This document shows positions 14,606 through 29,253 of a stretch of DNA of 52,106 bases, in pieces (within the stretch, counting starts at the first letter, position 1; each line of letters begins with the position of its first letter). The notes under the pieces were generated by a model. It was not told the origin of the DNA. It did no database searches and saw nothing but the letters and a program-made list of their open reading frames with translations. A program made the position numbers and the translations under genes. The stretch spans positions 1-52,106 of the forward strand of contig VEQR01000011.1 of assembly GCA_018883125.1 (NCBI GenBank), given 5' to 3'. Source of the DNA: Candidatus Kapaibacterium sp. Its GTDB lineage: Bacteria > Bacteroidota > Ignavibacteria > Kapaibacteriales > Kapaibacteriaceae.

Positions 14606-16726
14606 ATGACGCGCGTACTCACCACCATTCGTGCAGTTTGGACTGTTGGCATTCTCCTCGTGGCATGGGGTAAAATGATTGCTCAGCCCCTTCCCGAGGC
14701 GTATCACGACACGTTCGATGATAACAAAGGGGAGTGGCAGGTAGGGGGCTCACTCGGACGCAGTGCCGGGATAGCTAACGGGGCATATCGTGTTGACCAG
14801 CGCTCGGCCTTCGGGGAGTGGTTTACACCAACAACGTGCTTTGTTGATTACGCCAAAGACTTCGACATCGAAGTCAAGATGCGCCAGCTGGGTGGATCGA
14901 CTACCTCTGGCTTTGGGGTTTTCTGGGCTGCTAAAGGTGGAATGAACTACAACGCTTTGGTTGTTGCAGGCGCCGGACGCTACCTGGTGATGTCGATTGA
15001 TAACGGAAGCCGAAATGACATCCAGCCGTGGACGCCGTTCGAGGGCATGCCACCCATGCAAACATGGTTTACGCTTACCGTGCGCAAGCGTGGGTCGGGT
15101 ATGAGCGTAATGGTCAACGGCACGACGCTCTTTGCCTTCGACCGACCGAATATCTACGGTGGACGTCTGGGCCTGATCGTCGGTCCGCAGCTAGTAGTCG
15201 AAGTTGATGATCTCGTTGTTCGGCAGGCTCAGGGACCCATCAATGTTGCTGAAGACTGCATGATCGACGGCAAGCCCGAGAGCCTCGGACCGCAGGTCAA
15301 CAGCACTGGTGGTGATATCTCGCCAGTGATCACAGCTGATGGCAAGCGGCTGTATTTCGGACGGTATCCGTACATCGGCAACATCGGTGATCCATCAACG
15401 GAAGACATCTGGTTCACGGACCTGCAGCCCAACGGTACATGGGGTCCGGCACAGAATATCGGCGCACCGCTCAACAACTACGCATCGAACTTTCTCGTCA
15501 GCATCACGCCCGACCGGAATTCGGCCATTGTTGGCAATACCTATTACAGCAACGGACTCCCGAAGGGGGCTGGCATATCTTCTACCTTGTTGACGGAAAA
15601 TGGATGGAGTGTGCCGAAAGAGATCAAGATCGACCGGTACTATAATCAGGATCAATTCTCCGAGCTGTGTCTCGATCCAAGCGGGATGATCCTGATGATG
15701 ACGGTGCAGCGCGAAGACAGCAGGGGGCAGAAGGATATCTACGTTTCACGACGGAAGCCGAACGGTATGTTCAGCGAGCCAGTCAATTGTGGACCCGTGC
15801 TGAACACCTGGGGTAATGAGATTTCTCCGTTCATAGCTGCCGACGGGGTAACGGTGTTCTTTGCCACCGATGGCCGCAAGGGCTATGGCGACATGGATAT
15901 CTGGATGTCGCGGCGTCTTGATGATACCTGGACAAATTGGAGCGAGCCGAAGAACATCGGTCCGGTGATCAACACACCCGGATGGGATGCCTACTTCACC
16001 ATTCCAGCTAAGGCCGACTACGCATATTTCAGCGCGGCAAGTCCGACAGATGGTAGTTCGGATCTGTATCGTGTTCCGTTGCCGAAGGGACTTAAGCCCC
16101 TTCCCGTTGCACTCATCAGTGGACGGGTTCTCGATGCATCAACGAAGAAGCCAATTGCTACCGCCGTCAGTTATGAGAGTCTGACCAAGGGCATCACCGC
16201 CGGTATTGCCCGAAGCGAGCCAACGAAAGGGTCGTACAGCATTGTACTGCCAGTGGGCGACCTATATGGCTTCCGGGCAGAGCTTGAAGGGTTTTACCCT
16301 GTCAGCGATCAGCTTGATACGCGCTCGCTGGCAGAATACACCGAGATAACCCGCGATCTCTACCTGGCACCGATCACCAAGGGTCAGGTGGTAACACTCA
16401 ACAACGTGTTCTTCGACTTCCGCATGTCGGAGCTTCGACCGGAGTCTCACGCAGAGCTGGATCGTCTGGCGGCATTCCTCATACAGCGTCCGACGATGGT
16501 GATCGAGCTCGGTGGACATACGGACAATGTAGGAAGCACAAGCTTTAACATGGACCTTTCACGGCAGCGCGTGAACGCCGTAAAAGATTACCTCGTTAGT
16601 AGAGGCGTTGAATCGGCCCGCATGAAGGCCGTTGCGTATGGAGCTACAAAGCCCCTTGCAAAGAATAACACCGACGATGCCCGTCGGCGCAACCGTCGAG
16701 TGGAGTTCCGCATTGTCTCCATGTAA
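14606..16726 (+). CDS. OmpA-family envelope protein with PD40 repeats
   Basis: This is a 706-residue exported protein that probably anchors to peptidoglycan. The ATG at 14606 gives a signal peptide (about 1-26, ending near KMIAQ). Next comes a concanavalin-like beta-sandwich region (about 30-210, DTFDDNKGEWQ onward), then WD40-like PD40 blades (about 220-500, for example GKRLYFGRYP and EISPFIAADGVTVFFATDG). A small carboxypeptidase-regulatory-like domain follows, and finally an OmpA C-terminal domain with GGHTDNVGS and the RRNRRVEFRI end. PD40 plus OmpA architectures are common in Bacteroidota, some near type IX secretion genes. It lies eight bases after speA and just before the large secreted protein. 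Confidence 0.9.
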   Translation: MTRVLTTIRAVWTVGILLVAWGKMIAQPLPEAYHDTFDDNKGEWQVGGSLGRSAGIANGAYRVDQRSAFGEWFTPTTCFVDYAKDFDIEVKMRQLGGSTTSGFGVFWAAKGGMNYNALVVAGAGRYLVMSIDNGSRNDIQPWTPFEGMPPMQTWFTLTVRKRGSGMSVMVNGTTLFAFDRPNIYGGRLGLIVGPQLVVEVDDLVVRQAQGPINVAEDCMIDGKPESLGPQVNSTGGDISPVITADGKRLYFGRYPYIGNIGDPSTEDIWFTDLQPNGTWGPAQNIGAPLNNYASNFLVSITPDRNSAIVGNTYYSNGLPKGAGISSTLLTENGWSVPKEIKIDRYYNQDQFSELCLDPSGMILMMTVQREDSRGQKDIYVSRRKPNGMFSEPVNCGPVLNTWGNEISPFIAADGVTVFFATDGRKGYGDMDIWMSRRLDDTWTNWSEPKNIGPVINTPGWDAYFTIPAKADYAYFSAASPTDGSSDLYRVPLPKGLKPLPVALISGRVLDASTKKPIATAVSYESLTKGITAGIARSEPTKGSYSIVLPVGDLYGFRAELEGFYPVSDQLDTRSLAEYTEITRDLYLAPITKGQVVTLNNVFFDFRMSELRPESHAELDRLAAFLIQRPTMVIELGGHTDNVGSTSFNMDLSRQRVNAVKDYLVSRGVESARMKAVAYGATKPLAKNNTDDARRRNRRVEFRIVSM

Positions 16727-16760
16727 GGGGCATTTCGGGCGACTGATTCGCGTTTGTGTG

Positions 16761-19700
16761 ATGGTACTTGTGGGTGCATCATCACTGCTCGCGAAATCCG
16801 ATGACATAAATGAAGAGCGTCTTGCCGACGACTCTGTTCATCAGCAATCTGTCTGGTTCCGACTCGTAGAAGCTGGGCACCGCAACGTATTCGACCTGAT
16901 GCGGGAGATGCAGGCCGACACGACCCTTCGCGGCGGACGGCGCACTCGACAGTGGAAGATCGCCCAGCAGTGGATCGCAAAGCTGCGCCCTTTGGCCGAT
17001 GCCAACGGAAACGTGGATGTGTTGGAGCCGTCGCTTGAAGAGATCTTCGCTGAGCGCTCACGACGCAGGCGGCGCCACGAGTCGCCGCAGGCTAACGACA
17101 CGCGCTGGGAGGGTATCGGTCCATTTGGTTGGGATACAAGTGCTATTCTGGCAACCGGCTCACAAGGCATCGGTGTTGTACGCAGTCATCTCGTCTGGCC
17201 AACGAACCGACGTCTTGTCCTTGCCGGTACGATCTCTGCCGGTATCTGGCGCAGCACCGATGCCGGCAGAACATGGTCTGCGGTTGCCCAAGATGAACCC
17301 ATACAGTCGGTCAATCGCTTTGCTGTTTCCGGTCAGGTGGTCTATGCGGCCACCAATGCGGGGCTCTACGTGTCAATGGATAAGGGGCTCACCTTTACAC
17401 GACTGAATCTTGCAGGTGATGTGGCTCTCACGCAGGCCTCAAGCGTGGACCTTTGTAGCGTGGATCCGAATGACTATCGCCGAATCGTTATTTCGACCAT
17501 CAATCGACTGTTCCTCTCGACTGATGCAGGTTCCACATGGACATCGGCTACGAACCTCATCGGAACATGGTGGGACCTTGTCTGGCACCCGACGCGCTCG
17601 GACGTAGCCTATGGTCTTGTGCAGATCGGTGGACATATTCAGTTCGCTCGCTCGACCAGTTCCGGAGTGAAGTTCAATTCCACTGGTCAGGGATATCCGG
17701 CGCAGCGATCGGATGCAAGCATGGCGCGGGCGCTGCTTGCTGTTACACCGGCGTCGCCACGGACCGTGGCAGTAATGATTGCCGGAAAGACCTCGTCTGA
17801 TGTGGGTGGAGTGTACGGACTATATGTATCAACCGACGAAGGATCTACCTTTGAGCATCGTTGCTGCGGATCCGTGGACGGTCCCGAGGCAGCGAACAAG
17901 GACACGAATCCTAACCTTTTTGATTATGACATTTCCGGTCAAGGACTCGGTCAGGTAACATGGGACATGGGCTTTGCCATCTCCACCCGTGATCCGCAGT
18001 TTATGGTTGCTGCTGGTATCTTTCCGTATCGAAGCAGCGATGGCGGGCGAACCTGGAAGACTTTTCCCGGAATGCACTACGACATTCAGTCGTGCTCAAT
18101 CATTGGCGATTCCGTGTGGCTTACGCACGACGGTGGTCTTACGCTCAGCACCGACCGGGGACTGACCATTTCCGACCGCAGCAAGGGAATCTCGGCCACT
18201 GAGGTGTGGGGCTTCGATCAGTCGCATGACGGACACGTGATGGCGCTCGGTGCGTATCACCTGCCAACATTTGTTCGTGATACGACGGTCTATGCGTCCG
18301 GGCATCCATTCGACGGTTGGTACCCTTGGGCTGGCGCTGATGCGATGGGAGCGAATGTTAATCCTATTGCCACCGAGTGGATCTATGCGAAGCCGTGGAG
18401 TAACGTCAGGGCTCTGCGCACGCGCTCGAAACTTGCTCCTCCAAGTTCCTCAGAGCTTGGTATCGACCTCGGGTATATCACACTGAACAACATCTGCTTC
18501 GATCCCGTTGATTACTTCCACATCGTGGCCCCGGATTACGGAGCGCAGAGGCTTGTGAACAGTCGAGATAATGCTTCCTCATGGTCAACGCTGAAGCAGT
18601 TCTCCCGCTGGGTTCATCGTGCGCGCATTCATCCTCACATACCGGGTTGCATCATGGTTCTCGGTGATGATGCTCTTTGGCTAACGAACGATCGCGGAGC
18701 CACATGGTCGAATGTGACGCCCCCTTCATCTGTTGCGAAGGGGCAAGGCATGGTGGACATGGCATTCGATTCCCAGGATCCGCTCCATGTGTACCTTGCC
18801 TACGGTGGCAATCAGTCCCAGGTAAAGGTTGTCGAATCGACCGATGGTGGAAAGACATGGAAGTCCATTGGTCAGGGCCTTCCATCTTTCGCGGTGTTCA
18901 CCATGATTGACCGTGCCGGCGTTCCGGGGGAACTCTACGTCGGGACTTCCTACGGCGTGTACCGGCGTGATTCGATGGGTGCATGGGAGCCATTTGGAAA
19001 GGGGCTTCCATACACAAACGTCAGCTTTCTCGAGATCGATTATCCGAACGGTCTACTTCGGGCTGCCACAAATCGTGGACTTTGGCAGGCGTCGATTCCA
19101 CCGGCGGGTAGGCCCGAGGCACAGATCTCTCGCAGCACCGACACCGTGCGCTGCTCCCGCGCGCCAGTGCGTTTCGGATGTCGATCAGCCGCGCTCGAAA
19201 CGGCGGCCTTTCGGCGCGAATGGAAGTTTCCGGGCGGAGTTCCGGCGATTTCCAGCTCGCCGGTGGTGGATGTCTTCTATGCAGTGCCCGGCACCTACGA
19301 TGCCGAGCTGCTCGTGACGAACGAATACGGTCAGAGCCGTTCGGTGTTGAAGAATGCAGTGACCGTGCTCCCAAGCGAGTGCGACGGCTTTCATGCCGTG
19401 CCGGGCAGTGCTGCCGATCTTACGCGCGATGGCGATCATATCACGCTTGGCAGGATGCCTCAGAAGGTAAGCGAGTTTACCTTCACGGCTTGGGTAAAGC
19501 CAATCGGCATGCAGCCGAACTTCTCGGCCATTCTGTGTACGGATGCAGACCCCGATGTTTCCCAAGAGATCGGTCTGCAGTTTGCTAATGACAACAACGA
19601 GCTTGGGTACCTCTGGTCCGGTGGACGCTGGTGGTGGTCCTCGGGGTTGACGCTGCGTCCGGACGCATGGTCCCATGTAGCTCTGACGATCGATAGTACC

Positions 19701-20741
19701 GGCGCAACCGTCTATGTGAATGGGATACCAAGTAAGGACGCGACGCCGCTCCCGGCCATCGACCTTTCACAGTTGGTGTTCAAACTCGGGACGTATCACT
19801 ACTGGAGCTCGCGAAACTTCAAGGGGCTTATCGATGAGGTGGCTCTCTATAGCCGCTGTCTTTCGCTGAAGGAGATCCGCTCGGACATGCACCTTACGAA
19901 GCCGGGACCGCAGGACGGATTGATGGCGTATTATCAGTTCAATGAATCGCGTACCGGTACCATCTATGACAAGATCGCCGCTCGCGAAGGTCGTCATGAG
20001 GCCGGAGCCTCACCGGTGAGGTCGGACGCACCGGTGGCCGGCGGCAGAAGCGAGCTGCGACGTCTAGTTCCGGGCCAGCCAATGGCTGCATTTCGTGCGG
20101 TGGGCGACACCTGCGTGTTCCATCAGCCCTTTGCAGATTCCGTCGATGTTGTACTGACACGCTTTGACCGCATCGCCGTCGCACCTCCGGCGCAGGACAA
20201 GAATTGCCTTGAGGGCAGCTGGAGAATTCTGAATGTGTTCGGACCGGTTACGGTTGCAGAGGTCAGTGAGATAACGCTATCGGCAGATTCGCGCTTTATG
20301 CCGGAGAATCCATCAGGGCGCACTTGGGGAATCCTGACACGATCCGGCTGGAGCCTCAACGAGCCGTGGTCGGCTGCTCGCATTCCTTCGAATGGCGAGC
20401 TGAAGATCCGTGGGGCATCGATCACCAGCGGTGCAGACAGAGGACTGCTAACGCCTCTTCAGCTGATGGTTACCTACTCCGGAGAGCCCGTTACCGTAGA
20501 CGACCAGTTTGCACCACGAGAGCTGTTGATCACTCCACAGCCGGCCATGGACGTTCTGCGTATCAGCGCGCCGAATGCGATCTCGCACGTGGTTGTCAGC
20601 GACGTGTCGGGGAGAGTGCTCAGCGAATGGCGATTCTCTGGAACGTCGCTCGAGCAAGGAGTCGACCTCACGGGGCTCGGCAACGGCACCTACGTGGTGG
20701 ATGTGGACGGGCAGCGGCGGCTGGCCGTTATTCTTCGCTGA
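16761..20741 (+). CDS. Large secreted BNR/PKD/LamG protein with T9SS sorting domain
   Basis: About 1326 residues from the ATG at 16761. The frame is open upstream to 16632, but that would overlap the OmpA gene and bury the signal-like stretch (VMVLVGASSLLA); CTG at 16743 or GTG at 16758 are other possible starts. The first two thirds carry repeated sialidase/sortilin-type Asp-box motifs (STDAGRTWSAV, SSDGGRTWKTF, STDGGKTWKSI). A PKD-like domain follows (about 19150-19350), then a LamG/concanavalin domain (about 19390-19950, HVALTIDSTGATVYVNG). The C-terminus (PQPAMDVLRI to VILR, with LGNGTYVV) is a type IX secretion sorting domain. The protein is probably exported to the cell surface. Its substrate is unknown and enzyme activity is not evident. 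The end overlaps rqcH by 14 bases. Confidence 0.85.
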   Translation: MVLVGASSLLAKSDDINEERLADDSVHQQSVWFRLVEAGHRNVFDLMREMQADTTLRGGRRTRQWKIAQQWIAKLRPLADANGNVDVLEPSLEEIFAERSRRRRRHESPQANDTRWEGIGPFGWDTSAILATGSQGIGVVRSHLVWPTNRRLVLAGTISAGIWRSTDAGRTWSAVAQDEPIQSVNRFAVSGQVVYAATNAGLYVSMDKGLTFTRLNLAGDVALTQASSVDLCSVDPNDYRRIVISTINRLFLSTDAGSTWTSATNLIGTWWDLVWHPTRSDVAYGLVQIGGHIQFARSTSSGVKFNSTGQGYPAQRSDASMARALLAVTPASPRTVAVMIAGKTSSDVGGVYGLYVSTDEGSTFEHRCCGSVDGPEAANKDTNPNLFDYDISGQGLGQVTWDMGFAISTRDPQFMVAAGIFPYRSSDGGRTWKTFPGMHYDIQSCSIIGDSVWLTHDGGLTLSTDRGLTISDRSKGISATEVWGFDQSHDGHVMALGAYHLPTFVRDTTVYASGHPFDGWYPWAGADAMGANVNPIATEWIYAKPWSNVRALRTRSKLAPPSSSELGIDLGYITLNNICFDPVDYFHIVAPDYGAQRLVNSRDNASSWSTLKQFSRWVHRARIHPHIPGCIMVLGDDALWLTNDRGATWSNVTPPSSVAKGQGMVDMAFDSQDPLHVYLAYGGNQSQVKVVESTDGGKTWKSIGQGLPSFAVFTMIDRAGVPGELYVGTSYGVYRRDSMGAWEPFGKGLPYTNVSFLEIDYPNGLLRAATNRGLWQASIPPAGRPEAQISRSTDTVRCSRAPVRFGCRSAALETAAFRREWKFPGGVPAISSSPVVDVFYAVPGTYDAELLVTNEYGQSRSVLKNAVTVLPSECDGFHAVPGSAADLTRDGDHITLGRMPQKVSEFTFTAWVKPIGMQPNFSAILCTDADPDVSQEIGLQFANDNNELGYLWSGGRWWWSSGLTLRPDAWSHVALTIDSTGATVYVNGIPSKDATPLPAIDLSQLVFKLGTYHYWSSRNFKGLIDEVALYSRCLSLKEIRSDMHLTKPGPQDGLMAYYQFNESRTGTIYDKIAAREGRHEAGASPVRSDAPVAGGRSELRRLVPGQPMAAFRAVGDTCVFHQPFADSVDVVLTRFDRIAVAPPAQDKNCLEGSWRILNVFGPVTVAEVSEITLSADSRFMPENPSGRTWGILTRSGWSLNEPWSAARIPSNGELKIRGASITSGADRGLLTPLQLMVTYSGEPVTVDDQFAPRELLITPQPAMDVLRISAPNAISHVVVSDVSGRVLSEWRFSGTSLEQGVDLTGLGNGTYVVDVDGQRRLAVILR

Positions 20742-22329
20742 TCGTTCCTTCGGGAATGCCCGGACGCACCATTACCGTCTGCTCGCGCTCGAGCGTTACG
20801 GCTCCTACATTCGCCCCCTTCGGCTTACGAACGTATTTGCGCTGTGTGTAAACCACCGGTACATACGAGGCATTGCGCGCCTGCGAATAATACGCCGTGA
20901 TTGCCGCTGCTGCTTCGAGGATTTGCTTTGGGATCTTCGGACCGCTCACACCACGAAGCACGGCATGTGAGCCGCTGGCTCCGCGAACGTGCATCCACCA
21001 GTCCTGCTGGCGGGCAAACCTCATCGTGAGCTCATCATTGTTGGCGGCATTTCTCCCAACGTAAAGCGTGTGCGCGTCGTCGAGACGAAACTCCCGAAAC
21101 ATTGGCGCTTTGGTCTGCTGCTGATTTTCCATAGGGGTGTGCTGTTGAGGTAGGTCTGCAAGCGTGGTCGCAGCCTCAATGCGATGTCGTGTTTCAGAGA
21201 GTTCATCGATTCGATTCCGCAGTTCGGGGATTCGCTGCTCGCGTCGCTTCGCTGCCTGCTCGGCATCGCGAGCTTTGGCATAGAGCGCTGTGGCGTTTTC
21301 CAGAATCGTTGATTCGTTTCGAAGCGGGATCGTTTCGAGCTCGCCGGTGACAACGTTGATGAGGTCGAGATACTCCAGGCCAGAACGGTAAACATCCGAC
21401 TGAGCCATCAGCGTGTCGGCCCAGGAGCGATACTTTCCGGCACGCCCTGTAGCGGCTTCATCGGCAAGGACGGCTAGCAGCGTTCGGCTGAGCTTGTTGA
21501 GCTGAGCATCAATCGATCGAAGTCGTCTCTGGCGTTCTTCGCGCAGGGACCGATCAGCACGCCGACGAAATGACGTCGTGCGAACCGCATTGATCACCGA
21601 GTCGAATCGCTCTGCGACCTCCCACCCATGCAGCGGTACGAGTGACATCAGCATCTGTTCTCCTTGCGAGAGCAGGAGAAACTGAGGGTGATCGCGGCAC
21701 TCCAGCAAAAACGCATCTAGATGGTTGATGATGCTCGCACGCTGTGCGGGCGAGACATCCCGAACCAGTAGTGTGGGGTCGACTCCCGCCCGCAGACACA
21801 CCTCCTCGGCGTACGGACGTCCGAGCCGAAGCACGCACGTCGAGAGATCTTGGACCAGACTCTTGTCGCGTTGCTCAAGGGGCTCGGGTGCCGTGCGTGA
21901 CAACGTCGAAAACTCTGTCCCAATGCGCTCAGTTCGAGCGCGAAGGGCATCAATGATCTTCGACTCGCGGCACTGTACGATGTTGCCGCGTCCACCACTG
22001 AAGAGTTCTACGTGAAGCACGTTGTGTTCGAAGATGAAGCTAATCACTCGATCGTGCTGGAGCTTCACTACGGCACCAACCGTCTGCCCGATCAATTCCG
22101 GAAACACATCGATGCTGTTGCGCAGCGCGCGATGAACGTTCTCTCGTGTTGTGATTGACGCATCGTGCGCCGAGACATCGATCACAACTGGGATCTCCTG
22201 GGACTCGCCGACGAACACCAATGTAGCCACACACTTCTGCTGCGACCAGGCCCGAACCAAGGTTGCACCGCAGAGCCACGAATTGAGTTCCTGGGCGATG
22301 TGCTCAAGCGTGAGATGGTGACTAATCAT
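20728..22329 (-). CDS. rqcH: NFACT-family protein, RqcH-like
   Basis: Family members bind stalled large ribosomal subunits carrying peptidyl-tRNA and add alanine tails, marking the peptide for destruction; some were once named fibronectin-binding proteins. The 533 residues show an NFACT-N domain (1-200), coiled coils (about 250-390, with ELRNRIDELSETRHRIE) and the NFACT-R domain (about 410-510) with DWWMHVRGASGSHAVLRG. The start ATG overlaps the preceding repeat-protein stop by four bases (ATGA), so it is the last gene of the minus-strand run. The 3' end overlaps the T9SS cargo gene by 14 bases. Family assignment is firm; the alanine-tailing role is by homology. Confidence 0.9.
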   Translation of the reverse strand: MISHHLTLEHIAQELNSWLCGATLVRAWSQQKCVATLVFVGESQEIPVVIDVSAHDASITTRENVHRALRNSIDVFPELIGQTVGAVVKLQHDRVISFIFEHNVLHVELFSGGRGNIVQCRESKIIDALRARTERIGTEFSTLSRTAPEPLEQRDKSLVQDLSTCVLRLGRPYAEEVCLRAGVDPTLLVRDVSPAQRASIINHLDAFLLECRDHPQFLLLSQGEQMLMSLVPLHGWEVAERFDSVINAVRTTSFRRRADRSLREERQRRLRSIDAQLNKLSRTLLAVLADEAATGRAGKYRSWADTLMAQSDVYRSGLEYLDLINVVTGELETIPLRNESTILENATALYAKARDAEQAAKRREQRIPELRNRIDELSETRHRIEAATTLADLPQQHTPMENQQQTKAPMFREFRLDDAHTLYVGRNAANNDELTMRFARQQDWWMHVRGASGSHAVLRGVSGPKIPKQILEAAAAITAYYSQARNASYVPVVYTQRKYVRKPKGANVGAVTLEREQTVMVRPGIPEGTISEE

Positions 22330-25112
22330 TTCTTCGGTTCAGTCGGCTGCAGATTCTGCTTGCCTTCCATGACTTTTGTCAGGGGGCTGGGCAGCGCTGC
22401 ACCGATGCGCCGCACAAGCCCCTTGCCAGAGGCATCCTGCTGTGACCACCATCGGGTAAAGGTCTCAACGTCAGACGCAGTTGTATCCGAAGCTGCCAGT
22501 AGTCGCATCACGGACGGTAACGACCGATGATCGGAATGTCCGTCGATAAGTGGCAGGATCGACGCCATCGGACGCTTTGTTCCACGCACAATCCCTTCAA
22601 CGGCTGCCATACGAACGATCTGCAATGTGTCGTCAAGAAGTGGACGTAGCAGCACAGTATCAGGACTGAGCATGCGCGCCGAATGATAGGCGGCGCGCTG
22701 GCGGACGTACGGATGCTGGTCACTGCAAGCCCCCTTCAAAACAAGGGCACTTGCCGAATCACCGATCTCGCCAATGGTGGCAGCGGCGGTGCGGCGGCGT
22801 CTCCACAAGGTGTCGGAGAGCATTCCTGTGAGCTTCGGGATGAACTCCTTGGCCTTGACCTTACCAATGACCGTTGCGGCCATCGACATTGTTGCGTTGT
22901 CAGCTGAACTGAGTGATCGATCCAGCAGAGCAGTTGTCGAGTCTCTATGAGTGGCGTAAAGATCCGGCAGGACGTTCTCGAGAGTCAGACGCTCACGGGG
23001 CATCTGTGTGGACATTCTGGTTTCCAAGAACGACAGCGATTCATTACCGCGGCGTCCCAGTTCTTTTCGTGCAGGTGCTACGTTGTTTTGAAACCGTAGA
23101 TGGGAGGCTGACGCTTGGATGAAGAGGGAGTCGACGCGTGAGCTGAGCCCTGAGGATTGCGCAGACGATGAGGTAGATGCTGATGACGTGGTTGACGAAG
23201 GGTTCAGGTCGGCATCCAGCAGAATGCCATACGTTGAGCGGACCATTGTTGTGTCGTTTTGTTGTGTGTCGCCGTATCGATCACGTCCTGCTGCGTCGAT
23301 GAACAGACCCAGCATGCCGTACCCACGGCGCATGTCCGAATACCCAACCGTGTTGCCGTCGTTCATCGCGCTATAGCTGTCGTCGCCACGCTCATCGAAC
23401 AGAATCGACACCGCATTGGCATTGCCGGCACCAAGGGAGAGGCTCTCGCACATATACGTGTCGTTGCCTGCATGATCTCGAAGAATGCCCGTTGCGATGT
23501 CGTGACCACATCCCTGCGACACTCCATGCGAGCGATAGACATCCTCGCCGCTAAGATCATTTAGCAGGCCAACCGCAAAGTGAACGCCCGAGCCCTGGGC
23601 ATACTGATAGGCATCGTATCGGTCGTCTCCGGCGCGGTCGATCAGTGCACCAAGGCCGAACCAATACCCCGTACCCTGACCGTAAATGTCACATGAGTAA
23701 AGGTCGTTACCGGAGGCATCGATAAGCAGGCCTACACCGCCAGACATGATGGGACGCGAGCCAAGAGCCGCTCCTTGAGCAAAGGAGACCTGATGGTCAT
23801 CGTAGCGCAGAACATCAGCAAAGGGGCTAACGGCGATGTACCGATCATTGCCTGCATTGTCGCTCAGGATCCCAACACCACGCGTTGCACCAAAGGCTTG
23901 CGACTGCGAGGCACAGACGTAGAGATCGTGACCTGTGTCATCAAGCAGTAGGCCCATACCGACAATGCCTGCCCCTTGCGAGTTCGATCGGCTGCGATAT
24001 ACATCGTTACCAGCCATGTCGTGGAGGATTCCAATTCCATAGGTGCCAGACCCAAGAGCAAAATCCCTTGCTGTGTACTGATCATCGCCAGCTCGGTCGA
24101 TGAGGATGCCAATGCCGAAGTGTCCCGAACCGAGGGTGTGGTCCTGACCGCGATAGATGTCATCTCCGTCCATGTCGATGATGATCTGCGTCATGGTTGA
24201 GTCCGACTCAACAAGATCATACGTGTCGTTCCCGCCAACATCGATGATCAGCGCATAGGCGCCCGAATAGGAGTCATTTCCCGTGCCGCCAATGGCAAAG
24301 CGTCCGGCGGGAGTATTGATCACCACGCTTCTGACGGAGTCCTTCCGGGATGGATTGTTACTCATCACAGCTTGCATCTGTGCGAGGCAGTCCAGGTATA
24401 GCTCCATGCCGATGCTACAGACGCGCTCGGTGCTCGGCAGTGTTTCGATGGACGTACTGATGGCGCTGGTGACCTCTGTGCCATGTTGCTCATTGTCATA
24501 AACTTGCCAGAGCGTCAGACGTGCATCTTCCATCGATGGCGTCCATATCGAATCAAGCTGGCGAACAAACCAACGAGAATCCTTTGCGTTTTGCTGATCA
24601 CGAATGACCAATCGCAGCATCTCGGTCATGGACGCCGCCATGGAGGTTGATTCGATAAAGCGATCGAACAGTTTCTTCGTTGCTGGACTTACCCGTCGCA
24701 GCTGTCGCTGGATCGTGTCGGCGTAGGCCCGATACTTTTGAGGCATCATCGGAGGATATTCTTTGGCAGGCCACACGGTCTTGCCGAGAGAGGAGAACGC
24801 CGCACGCAGAGCGAGATTCTCTCTGGATATCAGCGCCGTGGCGACTTCATCCGTCCAGTCTGTGGCTCTCAACGGATCGACAAACAGACTATCATGAAAC
24901 AGCGTCCGATGAGGATCGCGGTCCAAAAGATCCGGCGGCATTGAAAGATCCGCTAAACGCATTCCGAGAAGAGCCAGAGCCGTGTCGACACCTCGGCGGA
25001 ATCGTTCGCGCGGCTGGCGTTGTAGCGTATCCGATGCAGTCGAGGCGTGAAGTACGTCATTGGAGCAAAACAGCACGATTACTGCGGCAACCAGACGAAG
25101 GGACAATCTCAT
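22326..25112 (-). CDS. Exported Gly-Asp-Tyr repeat protein with C-terminal HEAT repeats
   Basis: 928 residues with a clear signal peptide (about 1-24, ending LHAS). The N-terminal third (25-265) is helical and unrecognised. The middle (about 268-610) holds around twelve imperfect repeats of some 26 residues, with the pattern GIGILID-x-AGND-x-Y followed by a QGxG segment (for example LIDRAGDDQY, LLDDTGHDLY, LIDASGNDLY). This spacing suggests a parallel beta solenoid, perhaps metal-binding through the paired acidic residues. The C-terminal third (about 690-910) looks like HEAT repeats (PYVRQRAAYHSARML). It is encoded one base after a TPR protein and overlaps rqcH by four bases. I do not recognise a named family and propose no function. 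Confidence 0.82.
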   Translation of the reverse strand: MRLSLRLVAAVIVLFCSNDVLHASTASDTLQRQPRERFRRGVDTALALLGMRLADLSMPPDLLDRDPHRTLFHDSLFVDPLRATDWTDEVATALISRENLALRAAFSSLGKTVWPAKEYPPMMPQKYRAYADTIQRQLRRVSPATKKLFDRFIESTSMAASMTEMLRLVIRDQQNAKDSRWFVRQLDSIWTPSMEDARLTLWQVYDNEQHGTEVTSAISTSIETLPSTERVCSIGMELYLDCLAQMQAVMSNNPSRKDSVRSVVINTPAGRFAIGGTGNDSYSGAYALIIDVGGNDTYDLVESDSTMTQIIIDMDGDDIYRGQDHTLGSGHFGIGILIDRAGDDQYTARDFALGSGTYGIGILHDMAGNDVYRSRSNSQGAGIVGMGLLLDDTGHDLYVCASQSQAFGATRGVGILSDNAGNDRYIAVSPFADVLRYDDHQVSFAQGAALGSRPIMSGGVGLLIDASGNDLYSCDIYGQGTGYWFGLGALIDRAGDDRYDAYQYAQGSGVHFAVGLLNDLSGEDVYRSHGVSQGCGHDIATGILRDHAGNDTYMCESLSLGAGNANAVSILFDERGDDSYSAMNDGNTVGYSDMRRGYGMLGLFIDAAGRDRYGDTQQNDTTMVRSTYGILLDADLNPSSTTSSASTSSSAQSSGLSSRVDSLFIQASASHLRFQNNVAPARKELGRRGNESLSFLETRMSTQMPRERLTLENVLPDLYATHRDSTTALLDRSLSSADNATMSMAATVIGKVKAKEFIPKLTGMLSDTLWRRRRTAAATIGEIGDSASALVLKGACSDQHPYVRQRAAYHSARMLSPDTVLLRPLLDDTLQIVRMAAVEGIVRGTKRPMASILPLIDGHSDHRSLPSVMRLLAASDTTASDVETFTRWWSQQDASGKGLVRRIGAALPSPLTKVMEGKQNLQPTEPKK
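23282..24309 (-). repeat. Coding repeats: about twelve GND-x-Y units
   Basis: This stretch encodes the repeated segment of the 928-residue protein. Units share Gly-x-Gly-(Ile/Leu)-Leu-x-Asp-x-(Ala/Ser)-Gly-(Asn/Asp)-Asp-x-Tyr and are about 70-80 bases apart. The codons have diverged between units, so the array is old rather than a recent DNA-level tandem expansion. Boundaries are approximate. Confidence 0.75.
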
Positions 25113-25113
25113 G

Positions 25114-26439
25114 TTACATCCTCATTGCTGTTTTCAGCTGGCCGGCAAGGGCAGGGTCGATTCGCTCAAGTACGGGAAGTATGAGCTCTACCTGTTCACG
25201 TTTATTGTTTCGCAGATAACACCGTGCGGCCTGAAACAGCACATTGGGATTCTCCGGGAACCTCGTTACGTCGCGATCGATGAACGGAGCAGCATCGGCG
25301 CAACGTTCCGCATCGACGCAGGTACGAAGACGTTCGGCATGGTACACATCGGCTGAGTCATTGATGCTAATCGCCTGACCATGAGCACGCATTGCCTCGT
25401 CGAAACTTCCGAGTTTGCGGTAAAGAAGTGCAAGCGCATGATACGAGTCAGCGGCAAATGCGCCTGACGTGGTAGCGCATCGACGGAATGCTTGTATGGC
25501 ATCTTCTGAAAACCCGAGCACATCATACACGCGGCCCAGGTTATAGTATGCTTCCGAATAGTTGGGCTTGATGGCCAAAGCCCGTCTCAGAGACTTCACC
25601 GAAGAATCCAGCTGTTGTGATTCGATCTGAAGCAATCCGAGGTTGTACCAAGCCATGGCATCGTTTGGAGCACGTTTGGCGTATTCGGTCGCAACGGCGA
25701 GAGCTTCCTGGGTTCGCCCCCTGTCTTGCAGCGCCGCAGTCTGCAGCAGATACGCAGAGTTCGCCGAACCGAGCGCGATGGCGCGCTCGAGAAATGGTAT
25801 GGCTTGATCGGACTTCATCGCAGCCATGAGTGTTTCGCCGGCAAGCAGCTGAGCCACCGCAAGGTTGGGCTCCAGTTCAGCCCCACGCGTGGCAAGGTCT
25901 GTGGCTTCGAAGATCCTGCCCAGCTGCAGGTAACACTTGGTGAGCTGATGTATGATGGAGCCGTTGTCGGGACGTCGAAACAGCGCATCTTCCAAGTGCG
26001 TTATGGCATCATCGCATCGGCCGGTGGTTGCAAGCAACATGCCGAGAGCCATTGCCGGCTCCGCAGAGTCTGGAGCAATTTTGCGCGCTGATTCGAACAT
26101 CAAGATGGCATCGCTGTTTCGGCCAAGGTGCATTAGGGATGACGCTGCAATCATGCGCGGTGGATAGCTCGTAGGATGCTTGGCGATGGTTGCTTTCGCC
26201 TGCTCGAGTGCCTGGGGATGTCGCTTCTGTTGGGCCAGTGAAAGCGCCAACAACGTCATGCGATGAACATCTCCAGGATTGGTCTTCAATTCCTTCCGAA
26301 CAAGTGTCTCAACCTGCTTCCAGTCATTCCGTGCCACTGCCGTGGTGATAGGTTCGGAAAGCGACTGTCCGAATAGTGAGGTGGCCAACAGAAGGGGCAG
26401 GACAAAGAGGAGCGCTCTGATTGTTGTATAGGGCTTCAT
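25114..26439 (-). CDS. Exported TPR-repeat protein
   Basis: 441 residues from the ATG at 26439, chosen because it gives a clean signal peptide (PYTTIRALLFVLPLLLATSLFG, cut near residue 25) and overlaps the ribD stop as ATGA. The rest is a continuous row of about eleven tetratricopeptide repeats (for example YYNLGRVYDVLGFSEDAIQAFRR in the middle), a scaffold for protein-protein contacts, probably in the periplasm. It is followed one base later by the Gly-Asp-Tyr repeat protein, and the two exported proteins may work together. No enzymatic motif is visible. Confidence 0.9.
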   Translation of the reverse strand: MKPYTTIRALLFVLPLLLATSLFGQSLSEPITTAVARNDWKQVETLVRKELKTNPGDVHRMTLLALSLAQQKRHPQALEQAKATIAKHPTSYPPRMIAASSLMHLGRNSDAILMFESARKIAPDSAEPAMALGMLLATTGRCDDAITHLEDALFRRPDNGSIIHQLTKCYLQLGRIFEATDLATRGAELEPNLAVAQLLAGETLMAAMKSDQAIPFLERAIALGSANSAYLLQTAALQDRGRTQEALAVATEYAKRAPNDAMAWYNLGLLQIESQQLDSSVKSLRRALAIKPNYSEAYYNLGRVYDVLGFSEDAIQAFRRCATTSGAFAADSYHALALLYRKLGSFDEAMRAHGQAISINDSADVYHAERLRTCVDAERCADAAPFIDRDVTRFPENPNVLFQAARCYLRNNKREQVELILPVLERIDPALAGQLKTAMRM

Positions 26440-27518
26440 CGCTTGCGAACATACTGCGCATGGATGTCGGAACCCACACGCCGTGCGTGACATGCTTTCC
26501 ACCGGGAAAGGTCATTGTCGGCAAACCAGACCGGACCACTGCCGATGATGATCGGTGCTGTGTGCATCTCGATCTCGTCAATCACGTCATCTCGGAGCAT
26601 TCTACCAGCAAGGTAGGGGCCCCCTTCAAGTAGGATCGAAGCAATATTGAGCCGAGCCAAAACGCGCAGGATATCGCGCGAATCAACTACCTGATCTTCA
26701 TCGGCAGAGACATTATGGATCTCAACGCCACAGTCGATAAGTGATCGCTGCGCACGTGGATCGGCTTCATCGCGGCAGATGACGATCGTGCGAACGTCGC
26801 GGGCCGTTTGCACCAGCGTTGTCGTGGTTGGCAGACGACAGCTTGGGTCGACGACGATCCGAACCGGATTGCGGCCGGAGCAGAGTCGAACGGTCAGCTC
26901 AGGATTGTCCCACATCGCTGTACCGATCCCGATCATGATGCCGTCGCGACTTGCTCGCATACGGTGTACGCGAAGCCGACTCTCGACGGAGGTAATGTAC
27001 CGGGGTTGATCCTCCGGCATACGGACACGTCCGTCGATGGACGTTGCAATCTTCAGCGTTACGTGCGGCAGGCCCGTTGTGGTCCAGTGCACAAAGGCAC
27101 GATTCAAATGCTCTGCTTCATCGCGAAGCACGTCGGTCGTAACCGCGATACCGGCGGCTCGCAGAGCCTGGATGCCGCGACCGGATACTAGTGGGTTAGG
27201 ATCCGTCATAGCCACTACGACGTGGCTTACGCCACTTGCGATGATGGCCTCGGTGCATGGCGGTTGCTTACCATGGTGCGCGCATGGCTCGAGACTCACA
27301 TACATCGTGGCGCCGTCGGCACGACCTTGAAGAAAGCGAAGCGCGTCGATCTCTGCATGAACATCTCCATAGGCATGATGCCAGCCTTCAGAGAGCGTGA
27401 CGTCATCGTGGACGATCACGCATCCGACCATGGGGTTGGGACTCACGCGCCCCGAACCGATCCGAGCCAGGTCGAGCGCTCGGCGCATGTAAAATTCGTG
27501 TGATGTTCTCCGCATCAT
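26436..27518 (-). CDS. ribD: Riboflavin biosynthesis deaminase/reductase
   Basis: A bifunctional enzyme of flavin synthesis. The N-terminal cytidine-deaminase-like domain removes the pyrimidine amino group, and the C-terminal DHFR-like domain reduces the ribosyl side chain. It has 360 residues. Zinc ligands are H54 in HAE and C79/C88 in PCAHHGKQPPC. The reductase domain begins near residue 150 (VTLKIATSIDGR) and includes ILLEGGPYLAGRML. The start at 27518 overlaps the preceding lipoprotein gene by four bases; MRRALDLA at residue 11 is a possible later start. No other rib genes are present in the window. Confidence 0.95.
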   Translation of the reverse strand: MMRRTSHEFYMRRALDLARIGSGRVSPNPMVGCVIVHDDVTLSEGWHHAYGDVHAEIDALRFLQGRADGATMYVSLEPCAHHGKQPPCTEAIIASGVSHVVVAMTDPNPLVSGRGIQALRAAGIAVTTDVLRDEAEHLNRAFVHWTTTGLPHVTLKIATSIDGRVRMPEDQPRYITSVESRLRVHRMRASRDGIMIGIGTAMWDNPELTVRLCSGRNPVRIVVDPSCRLPTTTTLVQTARDVRTIVICRDEADPRAQRSLIDCGVEIHNVSADEDQVVDSRDILRVLARLNIASILLEGGPYLAGRMLRDDVIDEIEMHTAPIIIGSGPVWFADNDLSRWKACHARRVGSDIHAQYVRKR

Positions 27519-28351
27519 TCGAGTGGAAACTCCCCGGTTACTGATGTGGAGTAGGCAAGGGGCTTCACCGGCAGGGTATATTCCACTGTGTACAATCCGG
27601 CCGGAAGGGGAGTTCCATCAGACTGCACACCATTCCACGTGAGGCTGTATTCGTGCATCTCTCCAACGCCTGAAGGCTCTACGGGATAGATCATCGTTAG
27701 GAAGGCCAGGCCTTCGCTTGACGACCACACAACAGCCCCTTTGCCATTGATGATGCGAATACGCAGCTGTTCGGACGATGGGAAGTACTCGCCGGGCACC
27801 TGACGACGACGATGCGCCGTAGCCGTGAATGTGTATTGCTTGCCATCCTGAGAATAGGAGGTCAGCAGTTGCAGTGCAGAGGTATCCGCTGCAACCGGTC
27901 CGTTCGGCTGCAGTGTTAGCGTCCGTGTGGTCACTTGCAGTCTGCTTTGCACGACACCATACCGCTGAATTACACCATTCTTTACGACCTCTACAACCAT
28001 AGAGTCATACTTTGGCAGGGCCATGGTTTGTGTTCGAACGGTCATCGTTGTCGTGACGGTTTCGGAACGTCCGGGCGCACCCATGGACGTGAACTCCATG
28101 GGCATTTTGGCAATTGTCTCGTCGGCTTGAACAAGCAGCAACGAGACCTGCTGAGAAGAACCGAGCAGCGTGTCACCGGATGCTCGTCGTATGACAAAAT
28201 CCGTCGAGGAAGCAGAGTCTGTGTAGACGGTAACGCTTATTCGTTCCGGGGTCAGCTTGCTCGTTTGCTGTTGCTGGCCGATTCCGGCACAACCGTACAA
28301 AAAAGAGCTCAGGATGGCCAGCAGTGCGAGGTTTTGTGTCATTGAATTCAT
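27515..28351 (-). CDS. Putative lipoprotein with C-terminal FlgD-like domain
   Basis: 278 residues from the ATG at 28351, with a lipoprotein signal (hydrophobic 8-18, lipobox LYGC, modified Cys21). Longer starts would put this signal too far inside. The body is beta-rich. The C-terminus (about 215-275, YSLTWNGVQSDGTPLPAGLYTVEY) resembles the FlgD Ig-like or gliding-motility-type domain common in secreted Bacteroidota proteins. It is the first gene of an overlapping run that continues with ribD. About 100 bases separate it from the PNP gene, and that gap contains TTGACA at about 28386 on the minus strand but no clear matching -10. Function unknown. Confidence 0.78.
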   Translation of the reverse strand: MNSMTQNLALLAILSSFLYGCAGIGQQQQTSKLTPERISVTVYTDSASSTDFVIRRASGDTLLGSSQQVSLLLVQADETIAKMPMEFTSMGAPGRSETVTTTMTVRTQTMALPKYDSMVVEVVKNGVIQRYGVVQSRLQVTTRTLTLQPNGPVAADTSALQLLTSYSQDGKQYTFTATAHRRRQVPGEYFPSSEQLRIRIINGKGAVVWSSSEGLAFLTMIYPVEPSGVGEMHEYSLTWNGVQSDGTPLPAGLYTVEYTLPVKPLAYSTSVTGEFPLE

Positions 28352-28452
28352 GCTAAAAAGGGGATGACGACGAAAATCAAACATGTCATATGTCAAGCCT
28401 ATACGCACGATGCTCCGCATATCACCACGGCAATGTAGACCCAAAGGGCGAA

Positions 28453-29253
28453 TCATGCAACCGTCAGTTCGATGATATGGCTAAGCTGACGTGCTGCGGT
28501 CTTGGCAGCAAGGATGACCTCGTCATGTGTGGTTGTGTGGGATGCGGTTTGAGAGTGGACATTCGTTACCAATGAGACGATGACGCAATTGAGACCGAGA
28601 TTGTGAGCTCGGCGGGCTTCGATAGCCGTGGACATCCCGACGATGTCTGCACCGAGTGCACTCAACATCCGTACCTCTGCACGAGTTTCGTAGCTGGGGC
28701 CGAGCACCTGAACGTAGGTTCCCCCCCGCACATTGATGCCATGCTCTCGGCACCGCTGTGCTAGTTGGTCGCGTGAGGTATTCCAAACAGCTCCGGATGC
28801 TGTGCCCTGCACTGGGCGGTGTGCACTGGTGAGGGTCAGATCCAGCAGGTCCGTTGGCATAACCACGTCACCAACAGCATACCTGCTGCTTAGGGCACCA
28901 ACGGCATTCATCAGAACAATCTGCCGGCAGTTAAGACCGTGAGCAATGTCGACCAGGACCTGACAGTCAGTAGCGCAAAGACCCTCGTATAAGTGAAAAC
29001 GTCCGGCACAGAGCAGGTGGTGCTTTCCATTGATTAAAAGTTGACGAAACTCATGGGCATGGCCGATCACAGAACCGGTGGGCATACCGGAAACTGAGGC
29101 ATACGGGATCGAATCAACAACCACTCCGCCAATGGGCTCAAAGGAGAAGCCCGAGCCGGTTACGACGGCCGTATCGAATTGTTGATCCCATCGCTGACGA
29201 AGGGCGCCAACGGCCCGAAGTGATGAGCTGGCTGTGCTGGTACCTACTCGCAT
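28453..29253 (-). CDS. Purine nucleoside phosphorylase, inosine/guanosine type
   Basis: This enzyme splits purine nucleosides with phosphate into free base and ribose-1-phosphate for salvage. The ATG at 29253 gives 266 residues, the usual size for the trimeric PNP group. Conserved stretches are TGSGF near the start, GRFHLYEG, MNAVGALS, GPSYETRAE and GMSTAIEARRAHNLGLNC. The C-terminal end includes the expected TNVH-like segment. It is divergent from yicC across 89 bases, where the two promoter regions mirror each other. The downstream lipoprotein gene starts about 100 bases later. Confidence 0.93.
   Translation of the reverse strand: MRVGTSTASSSLRAVGALRQRWDQQFDTAVVTGSGFSFEPIGGVVVDSIPYASVSGMPTGSVIGHAHEFRQLLINGKHHLLCAGRFHLYEGLCATDCQVLVDIAHGLNCRQIVLMNAVGALSSRYAVGDVVMPTDLLDLTLTSAHRPVQGTASGAVWNTSRDQLAQRCREHGINVRGGTYVQVLGPSYETRAEVRMLSALGADIVGMSTAIEARRAHNLGLNCVIVSLVTNVHSQTASHTTTHDEVILAAKTAARQLSHIIELTVA

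What the first reader, a model, noticed from the sequence alone, without database searches (positions are those of the whole stretch)
22326..25112. Unfamiliar exported protein with twelve GND-x-Y repeats and HEAT-like tail
The 928-residue protein combines a signal peptide, a helical region, about twelve units with LID-x-AGND-x-Y and QGxG, and a HEAT-like C-terminus. The even spacing fits a beta solenoid with regularly placed Asp pairs that could bind calcium. The combination is unknown to me. It is translationally coupled to an exported TPR protein and to rqcH.
Basis: partly seen in the sequence, partly recalled or inferred. Interest (0 to 1): 0.6.

Follow-up and report, generated by a model that had tools for sequence, protein, structure and literature searches.

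The report
Exported beta-solenoid with invariant Arg-Tyr-His-Asp patch
This is a secreted bacterial protein whose repeats very probably wind into a calcium-type beta-solenoid; it belongs to a large family, absent from Pfam and NCBIfam, in Planctomycetota and the Ignavibacteria-like bacteria, and nearly every sampled member keeps the same Arg, Tyr, His and Asp side by side on the coil, so it may be an unrecognised enzyme or ligand-binding domain rather than a mere scaffold.

Summary
A 928-aa ORF at 22326-25112(-) has an N-terminal signal-like segment, a helical region, 13 GxDxY units (12 as DxxGxDxY; 0.25 expected after shuffling) and a Pfam-level HEAT tail. Nothing in Pfam, NCBIfam or PDB sequences matches the repeat region. 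AlphaFold2 predicts it as a beta-solenoid (domain model pLDDT 77.8, pTM 0.81). Among solenoids of known structure it resembles the Ca2+-bound RTX-like solenoid of the Marinomonas antifreeze adhesin (3P4G, Z 18-19), but its coils are 26-27 residues, not 19-21. Homologues occur in 101/246 Planctomycetota and 59/149 genomes of its own class, in 0/299 Pseudomonadota, and in no sampled Bacteroidota outside the class. HEAT, PDZ or unassigned helical regions flank the same core. The repeats are the best conserved part. Besides the scaffold, R453, Y483, H511 and D538 are kept in 62-63 of 63 non-redundant members (mean identity 38%), and positions 484 and 504 are always aromatic. Y483, H511 and D538 lie at the same corner of three successive coils, after an insertion carrying R453. 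My reading: an exported Ca2+-stabilised solenoid with one active-site-like patch, most likely carbohydrate-active. That function is inferred, not shown. The rqcH linkage is fixed only in the family.

The parts
22326..25112 (-). whole gene: exported helical / GND beta-solenoid / HEAT protein, 928 aa
25023..25112 (-). N-terminal signal-peptide-like segment (about residues 1-30)
   Evidence: by eye; similar segments with A-x-A/Q ends in orthologues
24333..25022 (-). helical N-terminal region (residues 31-260), mean column conservation about 40% in 28 orthologues, no Pfam match
23214..24332 (-). GND beta-solenoid core (residues 261-633): 13 GxDxY turns, mean column conservation about 70% in orthologues; AlphaFold2 domain model (residues 260-640) pLDDT 77.8, pTM 0.81
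23736..23831 (-). coil insertion, residues 428-459 (starts SPFADVLRYDDHQVSFAQGAALGSRP), carrying R453; about 20 residues longer than a normal coil
23754..23756 (-). codon of R453 (62 of 63 non-redundant members)
23664..23666 (-). codon of Y483 (63/63); the neighbouring position 484 is always W, F or Y
23580..23582 (-). codon of H511 (63/63)
23499..23501 (-). codon of D538 (63/63)
22329..23147 (-). C-terminal helical/HEAT region (residues 656-928); Pfam HEAT match 728-808
25114..26439 (-). exported TPR protein, likely start ATG 26439; stop one base before the GND gene
20728..22329 (-). rqcH (NFACT_N + NFACT-R), ATGA overlap with the GND gene stop
26436..27518 (-). ribD, upstream gene of the same run

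Best explanation
An exported protein (periplasmic or beyond) whose core is a flattened two-sheet beta-solenoid. Each 26-27-residue coil runs strand A (GxGLLID), a calcium-type turn (DxxGNDxY), strand B, then a second corner back to strand A. Shown: the repeats, the predicted solenoid, and the near-invariance of R453, Y483, H511 and D538. Shown by register: Y483, H511 and D538 fall at the second corner of three successive coils, opposite the calcium-type turn in the predicted coil order, next to the insertion that carries R453. Inferred: Ca2+ in the stacked GND turns rigidifies the solenoid once the protein is outside the cytoplasm, and these residues, with the always-aromatic positions 484 and 504, form one binding or catalytic site. 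Most likely that site acts on an anionic or other carbohydrate, with His as base, Tyr as acid and Arg/Asp for charge handling and orientation, in the way beta-helix alginate epimerases and lyases work but evolved independently. The HEAT, PDZ or helical flanks would dock the module to other proteins or to the envelope.
For: 13 GxDxY units against 0.25 expected. AlphaFold2 solenoid in the full-length and domain models. 3P4G, a Ca2+-bound solenoid whose repeat contains GTGND, aligns over nearly the whole core: 270 residues, 3.3 A, Z 19.4; domain model 274 residues, 4.0 A, Z 18.5, 16% identity (repeat consensus from PMC3492233). The solenoid is the most conserved part of the orthologues (70% against 40% and 49%). 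In 63 members under 90% identical (mean pairwise identity 38%) R453 is kept 62/63, Y483, H511 and D538 63/63; in 22 members under 50% identical 21/22, 22/22, 22/22 and 22/22; positions 484 and 504 are aromatic in all. H511 and D538 are 27 residues apart in 27-residue coils, so one coil apart at the same position. Characterised beta-helix enzymes use the same residue types: AlgE7 His154 as base and Tyr149 as acid, with Asp152, Asp178 and Arg195 important (PMC8824271).
Against: No enzyme family matches by sequence, and no PDB sequence matches the core. Model coordinates could not be inspected, so side-chain directions and distances are inferred from register alone; the four residues could be buried and structural. 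Gene neighbourhoods show no polysaccharide-utilisation genes. Foldseek itself ranks no PDB chain below E 0.001 for the core, and the top VIA rows mix several unrelated solenoids, so the fold match says nothing about function. Ca2+ binding was not tested.
Confidence: 0.4

Rival explanations
1. Non-catalytic ligand binder: the solenoid is a lectin- or adhesin-like envelope protein, and the Arg/Tyr/His/Asp plus aromatic patch binds a conserved ligand (a glycan, lipid head group or protein end) without chemistry.
For: Aromatic positions 484 and 504 beside charged residues are typical of glycan binding; the closest solved Ca2+ solenoid belongs to an adhesin (PMC3492233); PDZ and HEAT partner domains suggest assembly or scaffolding.
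Against: Invariance of His, Tyr and Asp across 38% mean identity in several subfamilies is stricter than I would expect for a binder adapting to different ligands (inference).
Confidence: 0.3
2. The four residues are structural: they brace the 20-residue insertion and a one-residue bulge at the second corner (27- instead of 26-residue coils), and the protein is an inert Ca2+-hardened rod or spacer holding HEAT or PDZ domains.
For: R453 lies in the insertion and D538 a few coils further on, so a salt bridge or hydrogen-bond network is possible; coils around the insertion are 27 rather than 26 residues.
Against: The insertion itself varies in sequence and length between subfamilies while the four residues do not; an inert rod would not need the solenoid to be better conserved than its partner domains.
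Confidence: 0.2
3. The operon partners define the function: the exported TPR and GND proteins work with RqcH in a stress or quality-control pathway.
For: Coupled gene order with rqcH in 13/13 family loci and in four loci of two other families.
Against: RqcH acts on ribosomes in the cytoplasm (established knowledge) while this protein is exported; many orthologues and all Planctomycetota members examined have other neighbours.
Confidence: 0.04
4. Ice-binding solenoid like Marinomonas MpAFP region IV.
For: Best-covered Ca2+ solenoid in the fold comparison.
Against: Threonine makes up only 4% of the core and no register carries a regular Thr/Asx row away from the turn; unique conserved residues are not needed for a repetitive ice face.
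Confidence: 0.02

Closest known systems
Marinomonas primoryensis MpAFP region IV (PDB 3P4G), RTX-like Ca2+ beta-solenoid
   Same: Predicted solenoid of similar length; GND in the turn followed by x-hydrophobic; one Ca2+-type turn per coil on one edge
   Different: Coils of 26-27 instead of 19-21 residues; extra conserved Asp opening the turn (DxxGxD); unique near-invariant residues; N-terminal signal instead of placement in a giant adhesin; no Thr rows
RTX beta-roll repeats (HemolysinCabind, Pfam PF00353)
   Same: Gly/Asp-rich turns between short strands, presumed Ca2+ binding
   Different: No nonapeptide GGxGxDxUx tandem; no Pfam match at E up to 1; one calcium-type turn per 26-27-residue coil
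AlgE mannuronan C-5-epimerases and beta-helix polysaccharide lyases (PL6 and others)
   Same: Solenoid with a Tyr/His/Asp/Arg set of the same residue types; calcium involved in several of them
   Different: No sequence similarity; AlgE residues Y149, D152 and H154 lie within six residues of one another, here the residues lie one per coil; three-sheet beta-helix (PL6) against a predicted two-sheet roll; activity unknown
HEAT-repeat and PDZ domain proteins of bacterial envelopes
   Same: C-terminal HEAT in the window protein; PDZ or N-terminal HEAT in relatives
   Different: These are optional partners of the GND core, not its defining part

Membership tests
HEAT repeat proteins | Pfam HEAT models above curated cut-off | tested here: met
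   HEAT_2 44.2 bits against 27.7, HEAT 28.8 against 23.5, residues 728-808
RTX nonapeptide repeat family (PF00353) | tandem GGxGxDxUx nonapeptides recognised by the Pfam model | tested here: not met
   no HemolysinCabind match at E up to 1; period 26-27
RTX / type I secreted proteins | non-cleaved C-terminal secretion signal, no N-terminal signal peptide | tested here: inconclusive
   N-terminus looks like a Sec signal by eye in window and orthologues; no predictor available
MpAFP region IV-like solenoid | 19-21-residue repeat xGTGNDxuxuGGxuxGxux (PMC3492233) | tested here: not met
   spacing 26-27, only the GND-x-hydrophobic part is shared
MpAFP region IV-like solenoid | same overall fold | tested here: met
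   VIA Z 19.4 (270 residues, 3.3 A) and 18.5 (274 residues, 4.0 A); other solenoids score similarly
MpAFP region IV-like solenoid | Ca2+ bound in the turns | not testable with these tools
   needs calorimetry or a structure
beta-helix polysaccharide lyase / epimerase families | sequence membership in a known family | tested here: not met
   no Pfam or NCBIfam match to the core at E up to 1
beta-helix polysaccharide lyase / epimerase families | conserved His/Tyr/Arg/Asp catalytic set in one pocket | tested here: inconclusive
   residue types nearly invariant; geometry not seen
beta-helix polysaccharide lyase / epimerase families | lyase or epimerase activity | not testable with these tools
   needs purified protein
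type IX secretion substrates | C-terminal sorting domain | tested here: not met
   no Por_Secre_tail match in the GND protein, while neighbour 16632-20741 has one below cut-off

The most novel reading that the evidence does not exclude
The GND solenoid is a so far unnamed enzyme superfamily of Planctomycetota and Ignavibacteria-like bacteria: a calcium-stabilised, RTX-like roll that acquired its own Arg-Tyr-His-Asp active site on the edge of consecutive coils, making a catalytic domain out of a repeat normally used as a folding or adhesion scaffold.
Probability: 0.3. Interest if true: 0.75.

Novelty: new variant of a known kind. Interest (0 to 1): 0.52.

Why it matters
A domain found in about 40% of sampled Planctomycetota genomes (up to seven matches per genome) and about 40% of sampled genomes of the window's class, with a near-invariant four-residue signature, has no entry in Pfam or NCBIfam. 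If the patch is catalytic, it would be a large unannotated exported enzyme family in phyla known for polymer degradation; if it binds only, it is still an abundant envelope module whose key residues can be mutated at once.

Tried and rejected
Sequence search of the core against PDB: only cytochrome c3 at E 0.11, judged chance. Plasmid records: no match. Viral contigs: none confirmed. Pseudomonadales locus L038, which matched only 54 residues of the N-terminal region: its genome has no GND core, and 0/299 Pseudomonadota have one. Foldseek with the full-length model was filled by HEAT proteins; with the domain model no PDB chain fell below E 0.001, and this absence is not evidence of a new fold. 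N-terminal helical regions: weak collinear match between HEAT-type orthologues and the 700-aa paralogues (hhalign E 6e-4, probability 11%), none to Planctomycetota PDZ types. Neighbour genes in relatives are housekeeping and gave no functional clue. Literature searches for the motif found nothing relevant. Loci fetched through the genome search were not handed to the structure predictor because its stated rule names only other tools.

Full report
What is there. The ORF at 22326-25112 on the minus strand is 928 aa, with a signal-like N-terminus, a helical region, a repeat region and a HEAT tail. The repeat region holds 13 GxDxY units against 0.25 expected in shuffled versions of the protein. 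Spacing is 26-27 residues apart from the first coils, the last coil and one 20-residue insertion. Pfam and NCBIfam recognise only HEAT in this protein, and no PDB sequence matches the core.

Neighbourhood. PNP, a lipoprotein-like gene, ribD, TPR, GND and rqcH form a tightly packed minus-strand run; the ribD/TPR and GND/rqcH junctions are ATGA overlaps and TPR/GND has a one-base gap. In the same family rqcH follows the GND gene in 13 of 13 loci. TPR precedes it in 9 of the 12 loci where it could be seen; one genus has ribD there instead. Outside the family rqcH adjacency was seen in four loci (L054, L070-L072) and is absent in others. The order is therefore an inherited arrangement, not a general functional link.

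Distribution. Full-length relatives occur in 45 of 60 near genomes. With a profile of the core (alignment A2): 59/149 genomes of the own class, 101/246 of the Planctomycetota sample, up to seven matches per genome, 0/299 Pseudomonadota, and 23/296 of the own phylum, all 23 inside the own class. Partner domains vary: C-terminal HEAT in the window type, PDZ at the N-terminus of Planctomycetota and some same-class members, N-terminal HEAT in L108, nothing recognised in others. In a FastTree of the core the HEAT-type members form one clade (support 0.994) while Planctomycetota and own-class sequences interleave elsewhere, so the family is old or has moved between phyla.

Structure. AlphaFold2 with only seven sequences gives the full-length model pLDDT 60.4 (repeat blocks mostly 70-92) and the core alone pLDDT 77.8, pTM 0.81: strand A, a five-residue turn with the GND, a longer strand B, a short corner. 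VIA-align places 3P4G, a Ca2+-bound RTX-like solenoid with a GTGND turn, over nearly the whole core (Z 19.4, 270 residues, 3.3 A; domain model Z 18.5, 274 residues, 4.0 A); other solenoids such as 8C50 (Z 21.0 at 8.2 A) and 2ODL (Z 18.9, 3.8 A) score similarly, so this supports the class of fold only.

The conserved patch. In 28 orthologues the solenoid is the best conserved part (mean column conservation 70%, against 40% for the N-terminal region and 49% for the HEAT region). Across the superfamily, 63 members under 90% identical and 38% identical on average, the scaffold residues of DxxGxDxY are kept as expected; in addition R453 is kept in 62/63 and Y483, H511 and D538 in 63/63, and positions 484 and 504 are always aromatic. 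Reducing to 22 members under 50% identical gives the same picture (21/22, 22/22, 22/22, 22/22). Most of these members were fetched by profile score and not by these residues. Caveat: the 16 seed sequences are among the 73 aligned. By register, 483/484, 510/511 and 537/538 are the same corner of three successive coils, on the side opposite the calcium-type turn.

How it most likely works. An exported, calcium-stabilised solenoid presents one site made of an insertion (R453) and three successive coil corners. His, Tyr, Arg and Asp with aromatic neighbours is the set used by beta-helix alginate epimerases and lyases (AlgE7: His154 base, Tyr149 acid, Asp152, Asp178 and Arg195 important; PMC8824271; PL6 uses Lys/Arg with His important, PMC6879350). 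I therefore favour a carbohydrate-active role, about 40% for the whole statement, with a non-catalytic ligand binder (30%) and a purely structural role (20%) as the main rivals. The analogy concerns residue types only; there is no family membership.

Verdict. The notable result is a widespread family without a Pfam or NCBIfam entry and with a near-invariant, testable four-residue signature.

Noticed in passing
16632-20741 (+): Predicted 1369-aa secreted protein with Sortilin/Vps10-BNR repeats, PKD, Laminin_G_3 and a weak (below cut-off) type IX sorting tail; conserved next to rqcH in several relatives.
   Followed up: no
L059, L060, L063-L065: Second GND subfamily of about 700 aa without HEAT in the same order and family, with a characteristic GRRADLGDGHSLAGG stretch in place of the window's insertion.
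   Followed up: partly
L033:6162-7214, L034:7362-8501: queA (queuosine synthesis) lies downstream of a PDZ-type GND gene in Planctomycetota; L035 and L036 have ORFs of similar size nearby that were not identified. A divergent gene with eight CarboxypepD_reg domains precedes it in L033, with ORFs of similar size in L035 and L036.
   Followed up: no
L067:2336-3466, L060:1812-3389: Proteins with type IX sorting tails sit near GND genes in own-class genomes.
   Followed up: no
L012 (G018:C15): The stop-to-stop frame of this orthologue is 1324 aa, much longer than usual; not examined whether the start is far upstream.
   Followed up: no
25114-28456 (-): ribD/TPR overlap by ATGA and ORF ends suggest the same for lipoP/ribD (27515/27518) and PNP/lipoP (28453/28456), so six genes may form one translationally coupled run.
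   Followed up: partly
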